Source: [Clostridium] clostridioforme AGR2157
GTDB lineage: Bacteria; Bacillota; Clostridia; Lachnospirales; Lachnospiraceae
Assembly (NCBI RefSeq): GCF_000424325.1
Contig: NZ_AUJR01000011.1
Location: 1-64,000, forward strand
Direction of reading: 5' to 3'
DNA: 64,000 nucleotides
Positions 55,066 through 55,979 of this stretch are shown piece by piece. The stretch's first letter is position 1; each line of letters opens with the position of its first letter. Both the position numbers and the translations under genes were made by a program. Below the pieces are notes generated by a model. It did not search any database, was not told where the DNA came from, and saw only the letters and a list, made by a program, of their open reading frames with translations.

Positions 55066-55115
55066 GGGGGGTTAGGGGGTCGCGTTCGTGGGAGCAAGGG
55101 GGAAGGAACCTGGGG
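55066..55115 (+). other. G-run cluster, possible G-quadruplex
   Basis: Five G-runs lie just after the MATE stop codon on the plus strand: 55066-55071, 55075-55079, 55090-55092, 55098-55102 and 55112-55115. The spacing (3, 10, 5, 9) permits a quadruplex in DNA or mRNA. No gene is seen between 55052 and 55163. Confidence 0.45.
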
Positions 55116-55163
55116 ATACGGCTGCGGGACAAGTCCGGTCTAAGGACAATCGGGAAAAAGTAA

Positions 55164-55394
55164 ATGGCTGGCTGGGGGAATGTCGAGGATTACAGCAGTT
55201 CTGAAAACATAAATCCATGTCTGGTTCTGCCGGTTTCGTACATTGAGTTTGCGAAAGAAGAGACACATCTTTTCAGGCTGTTATTCATAAACCATATGGA
55301 TCTGAGCATGGAAGAGCCAAAGGATTTCTATAAGGAGGCAGGCAATGAAAAGAGGGAAAAGATATTTTCGGATGCCATTGGAATCGAGTCTTAG
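55164..55394 (+). pseudogene. TetR-family regulator C-terminal remnant
   Basis: An open stretch encodes LVLPVSYIEFAKEETHLFRL then LFINHMDLSMEEPKDFYKEA. The SYI-EFAKEE-x-LFRLLF helix is typical of the ligand-binding C-terminal domain of TetR/AcrR regulators. The DNA-binding half is missing, the first ~25 codons look unrelated, and the frame stops at 55392-55394. A possible start ATG 55164 has no good ribosome site. It is a decayed fragment. Confidence 0.55.
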
Positions 55395-55614
55395 CAGCGG
55401 CGCAAAAAATAACATTAGACAGGAACCGTATAGAAAAAATGGCTGCAAACATGCTGACACCGCGACAGATGGCTGTGCGCTGCTCATTCGGGAAGCAATC
55501 GACAAAATGGACGATGAAACATTCAAATTATATTTAAAATATCACTACGCCACCTGTGAACGGAAAGACTTAACAGGAATTACCAGCCATGCAATTGACA
55601 TATTCCAAAAATAA
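55395..55614 (+). pseudogene. SAM-methyltransferase C-terminal remnant
   Basis: From about 55405 a frame encodes NIRQEPYRKNGCK, LLIREAIDKMDDETFKLYLK and YHYATCERKDLTGITSHAID, ending IFQK at 55612-55614. The helix-YLKYH-x-ATCER-x-D-x-x-G-x-x-x-H-x-x-DI-F-x-K pattern resembles the C-terminal end of small class I SAM-dependent methyltransferases. The N-terminal Rossmann part is absent. The frame overlaps the TetR remnant in another frame, so both appear as debris of a former gene pair. Confidence 0.5.
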
Positions 55615-55692
55615 ATCCCCCCATAAAAAGCAACCCCCATAACAACCAACCCAGCCAGTCATTTTTCTTTCCCCTGGGCGTGGAAGAACCAG

Positions 55693-55979
55693 CAAACGTG
55701 GAAAGCGTAGTGGGTGAGAGGGAGGCGGGCGGGGCCGGGAGTGAATTTGGAGCGATTCGCAGGGACTTAGGAGGCGGGGCGGGCCGGAGGGGAGGTTGCG
55801 CAGGGCGCTCAACGCCCGGAGCAAAGTGAACACGGAGCAGAACTCATCAAGAGTTCTGCGTAGTTTTCGCGATCCTCCCCTCCGGCCCGCCCCGGCGCCT
55901 TAGTCCCTGCCATCGCGGAAACATCACTCCCGGCCCCGCCCGCCTCCCTCTCACGGACGGAATCCCCCGCCACGTTTGC
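55693..55979. repeat. Long GC-rich near-palindrome (about 287 bp)
   Basis: Nested inverted repeats share one centre near 55836-55848. The outer arms are GCAAACGTGG (55693-55702) and CCACGTTTGC (55970-55979). The next arms, 55715-55744 and 55924-55953, are exact complements over 30 bases. The next, 55759-55795 and 55874-55910, match at 34 of 37. The top holds hairpins GGGCG-CTCAA-CGCCC (55803-55817) and GCAGAACTC-ATCAA-GAGTTCTGC (55837-55859). The left arm is almost all purine on the plus strand. There is no supported reading frame. The flanks 55615-55692 and 55980-56004 hold no gene. Confidence 0.9.

What the first reader, a model, noticed from the sequence alone, without database searches (positions are those of the whole stretch)
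55693..55979. 287-bp nested GC-rich near-palindrome upstream of priA
Three sets of inverted arms (10, 30 and 37 bases; the 30-base arms are exact and the 37-base arms match at 34) share one centre topped by two small hairpins with CTCAA and ATCAA loops. Each strand is strongly purine/pyrimidine biased, no frame looks coding, and the element ends 25 bp before the priA promoter. It is far longer than a terminator or REP unit. Possibilities are a structured ncRNA, a dsRNA source, a MITE-like or palindromic mobile element, or a replication/condensin-type site. Conservation of complementarity despite mismatches would imply selection on the fold.
Basis: seen in the sequence. Interest (0 to 1): 0.75.

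Follow-up and report, generated by a model that had tools for sequence, protein, structure and literature searches.

The report
Dispersed giant-hairpin RNA element family
The long palindrome is one copy of a previously unclassified, repeated RNA-folding element scattered between genes of some gut Lachnospiraceae bacteria, often as back-to-back pairs near transcription stop signals; its fold has been preserved while its letters changed, but what it does is unknown.

Summary
The palindrome is real and far beyond chance. It is one copy of a family: a covariance model of its inner 147 nt hits 6 of 17 Enterocloster genomes and three other Lachnospiraceae genera; a sister hairpin, beta, hits 8 of 20 genomes. 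In 14 copies 98.0% of cells pair and 53 of 89 pairs change on both sides; 0 of 500 shuffles match this. Wobble pairs exceed their mirror mismatch (G.U 26, A.C 0; 68 to 11), so the fold seems kept as RNA, window + strand. Paralogues align over about 320-430 bp: single hairpins spread, not pairs. Close neighbours point apart in 19 of 19 pairs. Units favour convergent gene ends (23 of 54 against 5 of 66 gaps); T-runs and terminator-like hairpins are commoner on the 5' side. Sister species show sites with ordinary terminators instead. The priA position is incidental. Best reading: a non-autonomous dispersed structured-RNA element docking near terminators. Rfam, Y1 transposases and promoter words do not explain it. 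Transcription, mobility enzyme and function are unproven.

The parts
55662..55666 (+). T-run 41-45 nt before the GTAG foot; a position favoured in the family
   Evidence: sequence; family histogram: of 91 copies 49 have TTTTT in the 200 nt on the 5' side, 20 of these at 20-40 nt before the hairpin edge used there
55692..55979 (+). whole alpha hairpin of the window, inferred RNA sense = + strand
   Evidence: sense strand
55692..55701 (+). outer stem P1, 5' arm (pairs with 55970-55979)
   Evidence: fold
55970..55979 (+). outer stem P1, 3' arm
   Evidence: fold
55707..55718 (+). 5' foot GTAGTGGGTGAG, conserved in type-A alpha and beta copies
55714..55744 (+). stem P2, 5' arm, 31 nt exact complement of 55924-55954
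   Evidence: covariation
55924..55954 (+). stem P2, 3' arm; followed by conserved GGACG (55955-55959)
55759..55795 (+). stem P3, 5' arm, holds CTTAG (55766-55770)
55874..55910 (+). stem P3, 3' arm, holds CTTAG (55899-55903)
55803..55817 (+). tip hairpin 1, GGGCG-CTCAA-CGCCC
55837..55859 (+). tip hairpin 2, GCAGAACTC-ATCAA-GAGTTCTGC; most of its stem is replaced in other copies while the loop is mostly kept
55762..55907 (+). stretch matched by covariance model R1 (151.4 bits; the window copy is one of the 13 rows the model was built from)
55081..55145 (-). relic (3' arm only) of a beta hairpin behind the MATE gene; intact in the orthologous G004 locus (L106 2653-2805)
   Evidence: read by eye against L106; L106 hit; no R2 hit in the window itself

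Best explanation
The window holds one copy of a family of about 320-nt structured-RNA elements ('alpha'; sister family 'beta'). Shown: copies occur in a patchy set of Lachnospiraceae; paralogues are alike over one hairpin with its leader and not beyond; stems are rewritten between copies while pairing, CUUAG motifs and UCAA-type loops mostly stay; wobble pairs are tolerated on one strand and their mirror mismatches rarely, so the fold looks kept as RNA, read from the inner foot outwards. Shown statistically, on partly related copies: they favour gene ends, have a T-run or terminator-like hairpin more often on the 5' side, and close pairs point away from each other. Inferred: the element is non-autonomous and spreads through recognition of its folded RNA (or, less likely, its single-stranded DNA hairpin) by an enzyme encoded elsewhere, entering beside terminators, where it does little harm; because a bidirectional terminator offers two such sides, pairs facing away from each other arise. 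Individual copies are dispensable.
For: Copies. Fold and covariation: (98.0% of cells paired, 53 of 89 pairs with two-sided change, 0 of 500 shuffles; slid controls 40-50% paired). RNA strand: 14 motif-oriented copies G.U 26, A.C 0; 64 copies, isolated mismatches with 3 flanking pairs 68 to 11 (141 to 69, 94 to 22 and 46 to 7 with 1, 2 and 4 flanking pairs), 53 to 11 after collapsing identical contexts, beta 17 to 0 in 8 copies with 2 flanking pairs; sense strand folds better in 56 of 64. Single-unit spread: same-genome alignments among the best 45 run 319-427 bp, six between-genome pairs taken as orthologues run 607-948 bp into their flanks. Divergent pairs: 16 of 16 within 1.2 kb plus 3 of 3 in other genera. 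Gene ends: convergent 23 of 54 units, 5 of 66 background gaps, Fisher 7.5e-6. Terminator side: 34 of 91 on the 5' side, 17 of 91 on the 3' side, discordant 28 to 11, p 0.009; T-run clustering. Sites with ordinary terminators in sister species. No transposase among 28 of 40 neighbouring proteins of 20 units that were scanned; 2 of the 28 matched no family.
Against: No promoter signal before the hairpins (extended -10 word in 13 of 88 on the 5' side in sense, 8-18 of 88 in the three controls). No transcript data. No target duplication could be read. Single copies between genes of one direction show no clear sense preference (11 to 6). By eye, the G000/G004 orthologues at the C18 site differ at three stem positions, none compensated; those at the C1 site show one compensated position among several uncompensated ones. 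The G.U excess could in part come from strand-biased mutation. Copies in the counts include orthologues and partners of one spacer, so they are not independent. No mobility enzyme was identified.
Confidence: 0.6

Rival explanations
1. Giant REPIN-like DNA repeat: paired palindromes with a GTAG foot mobilised as single-stranded DNA by a Y1 (RAYT) transposase; pairing kept for DNA hairpin recognition.
For: GTAG foot in type-A and beta copies, pairing of units around a spacer, position at gene 3' ends and multi-copy dispersal resemble REP dimers (PMC3733652).
Against: PF01797 was not found in the single-contig genome G014, which has the most alpha matches. G.U but rarely A.C is tolerated, which DNA pairing does not predict. 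REPs are 20-40 bp. G007 alpha copies that I read show no GTAG at the foot (by eye).
Confidence: 0.1
2. Bidirectional end-of-gene insulator: the folded RNAs act in cis on read-through transcripts, halting or trimming transcripts that pass the central terminator; each hairpin of a pair guards the opposite gene.
For: Convergent gene ends enriched; in a divergent pair, read-through from either side meets the far hairpin in its sense orientation (19 of 19 pairs diverge); ordinary terminators sit at the same place in some species without the element.
Against: 40 of 54 units have no recognised partner, and single ones between genes of one direction show no sense preference (11 to 6); copies are lost between sister species; terminator-like hairpins are present beside many copies anyway.
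Confidence: 0.15
3. Trans-acting small RNA genes, expressed outwards from the shared spacer.
For: Outward RNA sense, conserved loops and AT-rich spacers in the pairs printed.
Against: No promoter word enrichment; copy number varies from genome to genome; the neighbours scanned have no common theme.
Confidence: 0.1
4. Arms are kept alike by DNA template switching or arm conversion in a neutral palindrome, not by selection on a fold.
For: Few G.U cells (26 of 1220) beside 183 cells with two-sided change; a beta loop is inverted between G000 and G004 (by eye), a DNA-level event.
Against: Conserved asymmetric internal loops persist between rewritten stems, and the strand-specific G.U excess is not predicted.
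Confidence: 0.1

Closest known systems
REP / BIME / REPIN repeats (GTAG- and CGTC-tagged, RAYT-associated)
   Same: Dispersed intergenic palindromes, often in inverted pairs with a spacer, mostly behind genes and between convergent or co-directional genes; a GTAG foot in type-A and beta copies (PMC3733652: abstract, passages and section 15 seen).
   Different: REPs are 20-40 bp hairpins; here each unit is about 320 nt with a branched tip, internal loops and one-strand wobble tolerance; no Y1 transposase found in G014; in the 19 close pairs the 5' feet always face inwards, while most REP families prefer the other arrangement.
Group IIC introns (retroelements that insert after intrinsic terminators)
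   Same: An RNA-level element whose 5' end tends to lie behind T-runs and terminator-like hairpins (terminator recognition seen in passages and reference titles of PMC7161350).
   Different: No group II model of Rfam matches the window or nine carrier loci, while group II introns in these genomes are found by the same library; no reverse transcriptase inside the hairpins or the short spacers printed.
[quoted passage not shown]
   Same: Short, non-coding, multi-copy, patchy, absent from orthologous sites in some sister species.
   Different: No readable target duplication, and a branched RNA-like fold with stem-wide covariation; a parent insertion sequence was not searched for beyond PF01797.
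Large structured bacterial ncRNAs in Rfam
   Same: Big, GC-rich, strongly covarying intergenic structure.
   Different: No Rfam family reaches its gathering score in the window or nine carrier loci.

Membership tests
REP/REPIN-RAYT | Y1 transposase (PF01797) encoded in the carrier genome | tested here: not met
   0 matches in single-contig genome G014 (most alpha matches), although 10 of 17 genus genomes have one, other carriers among them
REP/REPIN-RAYT | 20-40 bp simple palindromic unit | tested here: not met
   unit about 320 nt with branched tip
REP/REPIN-RAYT | GTRG-type tag at the hairpin foot | tested here: inconclusive
   a search for GTAGTGGGTGAG with up to 2 changes beside a hairpin lists 42 places, 8 of them antisense look-alikes; G007 alpha copies read by eye lack it
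REP/REPIN-RAYT | inverted pairs behind genes | tested here: met
Group II intron | match to Rfam group II models | tested here: not met
   none in the window or in 9 carrier loci; positive control
Group II intron | insertion after intrinsic terminators (class C) | tested here: inconclusive
   terminator-like on the 5' side in 34 of 91 copies, 3' side 17 of 91; on the sense strand 18 and 5
MITE | target-site duplication | tested here: inconclusive
   sites without the element are too diverged at the junctions
Rfam-listed ncRNA family | score above gathering threshold | tested here: not met
   the 16 sub-threshold hits in the window are mostly long-hairpin microRNA models on both strands, taken as shape only
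Conserved structured RNA | covariation beyond shuffled and slid controls | tested here: met
   (the structure was derived from the same alignment)
Conserved structured RNA | transcript observed | not testable with these tools
   no RNA-seq on hand

The most novel reading that the evidence does not exclude
A bacterial counterpart of SINEs: short, branched, non-coding RNAs copied into DNA by a reverse transcriptase encoded elsewhere (for example by resident group II introns) and inserted behind intrinsic terminators, so that convergent genes gather two copies pointing away from each other.
Probability: 0.15. Interest if true: 0.92.

Novelty: new variant of a known kind. Interest (0 to 1): 0.72.

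Why it matters
A dispersed bacterial repeat whose unit is a large branched RNA, with wobble tolerance on one strand and a back-to-back arrangement around gene ends, does not fit REP, group II intron or Rfam families as tested. If it moves through RNA it would be a new class of non-autonomous retroelement; if it acts on read-through it would be an unknown kind of gene-end control in gut bacteria. Covariation this strong (53 of 89 pairs) in a family without an Rfam match makes it directly testable.

Tried and rejected
priA control element: rejected. The hairpin is half deleted in G004 and absent in G015, and priA keeps its promoter.

Cargo transposon: at the priA site I first read beta-TetR-methyltransferase-alpha as a unit with cargo. 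G015 has MATE, TetR and methyltransferase before priA without either hairpin, so the genes are probably not cargo.

RAYT partner: rejected for G014. Reverse transcriptase as a marker: PF00078 is in 16 of 17 genus genomes, so uninformative.

Phage or plasmid origin: no match in phages or plasmids at DNA level and no pattern match in viral contigs; these reach close relatives only.

Promoters in the spacer: a TATAAA-like word before some beta copies looked promising by eye, but extended -10 words are not enriched.

One search gave terminator counts that included two copies with faulty flanks; one search repeats it without them (91 of 93 copies), and only one search is quoted. A second site chosen for an empty-site comparison (L111) gave nothing readable.

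Literature: searches listed no paper on such an element in Lachnospiraceae; only the top 20 of 172, 15 of 1,465, 15 of 650, 6 of 16, 6 of 6 and 8 of 5,053 papers were listed, in one open-access library. PMC3733652 was seen as abstract, passages and section 15; PMC7161350 and PMC2267715 as passages; the other papers as listings.

Full report
Observation. The palindrome at 55692-55979 is present as described, with small corrections: the outer 10-nt arms begin one base earlier and the exact middle arms are 31 nt. As RNA it folds at -231.5 kcal/mol on + and -227.1 on -, against shuffle means near -133 (z -18.0 and -19.05).

It is one of a family. In the window's own genome a DNA search finds paralogous stretches on contigs C18 and C24 (73% identity, most of the length) and shorter ones on C1 and C47 (76-82%). 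A DNA search of 61 genomes finds it in 6, all in the genus (one of the six, G003, by a 27-nt match that I do not count), and in 0 of 44 genomes outside. A covariance model of the inner 147 nt (R1, 13 copies) hits 6 of 17 genus genomes at E <= 0.01, 4 of 150 family genomes including the window's own at E <= 1e-4, and 1 of 392 order genomes, the window's own; the last two used stricter filters that lose weak matches.

Structure. In 14 type-A copies that I oriented by sequence motif, the fold is an outer stem, a conserved asymmetric internal loop, a second stem with CUUAG on both arms, and a branched tip with two hairpins whose stems change while the CUCAA-like and AUCAA-like loops mostly stay. 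One of the 14 has an internal deletion (L025). Of 1220 cells 98.0% pair; 53 of 89 pairs have two-sided changes; 0 of 500 shuffles reach any of the five measures; slid partners pair in 40-50%. The structure was derived from this alignment, so the slid control is generous.

Which strand. A hairpin kept as RNA should tolerate G.U but not A.C; a hairpin kept as DNA should treat them alike. The 14 motif-oriented copies have 26 G.U cells and no A.C. With arms aligned by a scoring blind to G.U, isolated mismatches flanked by three Watson-Crick pairs in 64 copies are 68 G.U and 11 A.C; with 1, 2 and 4 flanking pairs the counts are 141 to 69, 94 to 22 and 46 to 7. Collapsing identical contexts leaves 53 to 11. 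The 64 were left of 93 model matches after dropping antisense matches and duplicates; their strand was chosen by model score, by a wide margin where both strands are listed. A second hairpin family, beta, gives 17 to 0 in 8 copies with two flanking pairs, some shared by descent. The favoured strand runs from the inner foot outwards. In the window it is +. Strand-biased mutation is not excluded.

Beta. Beta hairpins share the GTAGNGGGTGAG foot, the CTTAG motifs and the CTCACGGACG end but have a different interior. A beta model (R2, 7 copies) hits 8 of 20 genomes searched at E <= 0.001. In the window a beta relic lies behind the MATE gene (55081-55145, by eye against L106).

Arrangement. In the fetched loci, 16 of 16 neighbouring hairpins within 1.2 kb point away from each other (in five loci where both models matched I chose alpha or beta by hand); three further pairs in other genera do too (L115, L119, L126). 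One wider neighbour pair, 2.1 kb apart in L086, has both hairpins in one direction. Pairs are alpha-alpha, alpha-beta or beta-beta. Yet same-genome paralogues resemble each other over 319-427 bp, a single hairpin with its leader, while six between-genome pairs that I take as orthologues align over 607-948 bp into their flanks (68 copies of five genomes compared within type, flanks of 400 bp, best 45 alignments listed). So single hairpins appear to disperse and pairs to arise afterwards.

Place. Counting open frames of at least 150 aa as genes (crude), 23 of 54 units lie between convergent genes against 5 of 66 other gaps (Fisher 7.5e-6); some units are orthologues of each other. Of 40 neighbouring proteins of 20 units I scanned 28: ordinary genes of many kinds, no transposase, 2 without any family (where MATE and PriA were scanned as well). 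Of 91 copies, 34 have a terminator-like hairpin within 200 nt on the 5' side and 17 on the 3' side (discordant 28 to 11, p 0.009); on the sense strand 18 against 5, shuffles 0-5; T-runs cluster 20-40 nt before the hairpin edge (20 of the 49 copies that have one). Partners of a pair share a spacer, so these are not independent.

Sites without the element. At the C24 site G000 and G004 carry a unit, whereas G015, G009 and G014 have an ordinary hairpin terminator behind the same gene; G013 shows neither; for five more genomes the print showed the wrong side. At a G015 site on C33, G004 and G012 have a plain terminator right after the stop codon, while in G015 the alpha hairpin lies between the stop codon and a terminator-like hairpin; the G000 locus lacks the hairpin but is rearranged. 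No target duplication could be read.

priA. In G004 the orthologous copy has lost its left half and centre; in G015 the hairpin is absent and only a doubtful end fragment may remain. The association with priA is incidental.

Mechanism. I take the element to be a dispersed, non-autonomous structured RNA that docks beside terminators. Shown: family, fold, one-strand wobble tolerance, single-unit similarity, gene-end bias, divergent pairing. Inferred: mobility through recognition of the RNA, and harmless docking as the reason for its place. The enzyme is unknown: PF01797 was not found in G014, and reverse transcriptases are in 16 of 17 genomes. Group II introns in these genomes are recognised by Rfam, but the window and nine carrier loci give no Rfam match at gathering. 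Promoter words are not enriched.

Results against. Old copies drift: the C18 orthologues of G000 and G004 differ at three stem positions, none compensated (by eye), and the C1 orthologues show one compensated position among uncompensated ones (by eye). Copies are truncated or lost, single copies between genes of one direction show no clear sense preference (11 to 6), and a beta loop inversion between G000 and G004 (by eye) shows that DNA-level palindrome events also occur.

Known relatives. REP repeats share inverted pairing, gene-end position and, for type-A and beta copies, the GTAG tag (PMC3733652) but are 20-40 bp and tied to RAYT enzymes. Group IIC introns share terminator docking (PMC7161350, passages) but not the fold. 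I file it under neither.

Noticed in passing
L065 4312-4339 (Gemmatimonadetes MAG contig JADGQX010000316.1): One exact match to the 22-base alpha tip pattern in a Gemmatimonadetes MAG, close to the contig end; chance, contamination or a distant relative.
   Followed up: no
window 55164-55614: Decayed TetR-like and methyltransferase-like genes, longer in the G004 and G015 orthologous loci, between MATE and priA; named by eye from translations, not by a family search.
   Followed up: partly
L149 and L011 (C24 site): The centre of a beta hairpin is inverted between G004 and G000, as if the palindrome had flipped its loop (by eye).
   Followed up: partly
G004 contigs C1 and C2; G014 C1: Bursts of reverse-transcriptase genes: 80 PF00078 matches in G004 (possibly a cap) and 15 in G014, many with identical scores; the four loci of G014, G007 and G004 given to Rfam all match group II intron models.
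   Followed up: partly
G000, many contigs: 21 PF01797 (Y1 transposase) matches in the window's genome, many at contig ends, suggesting many near-identical copies that break the assembly.
   Followed up: no
beta outer ends, e.g. L013, L096, L246: Several copies continue after the 3' stem with GGACGGATGCACCTCC, which resembles the 3' end of 16S rRNA (recalled); possibly chance.
   Followed up: no
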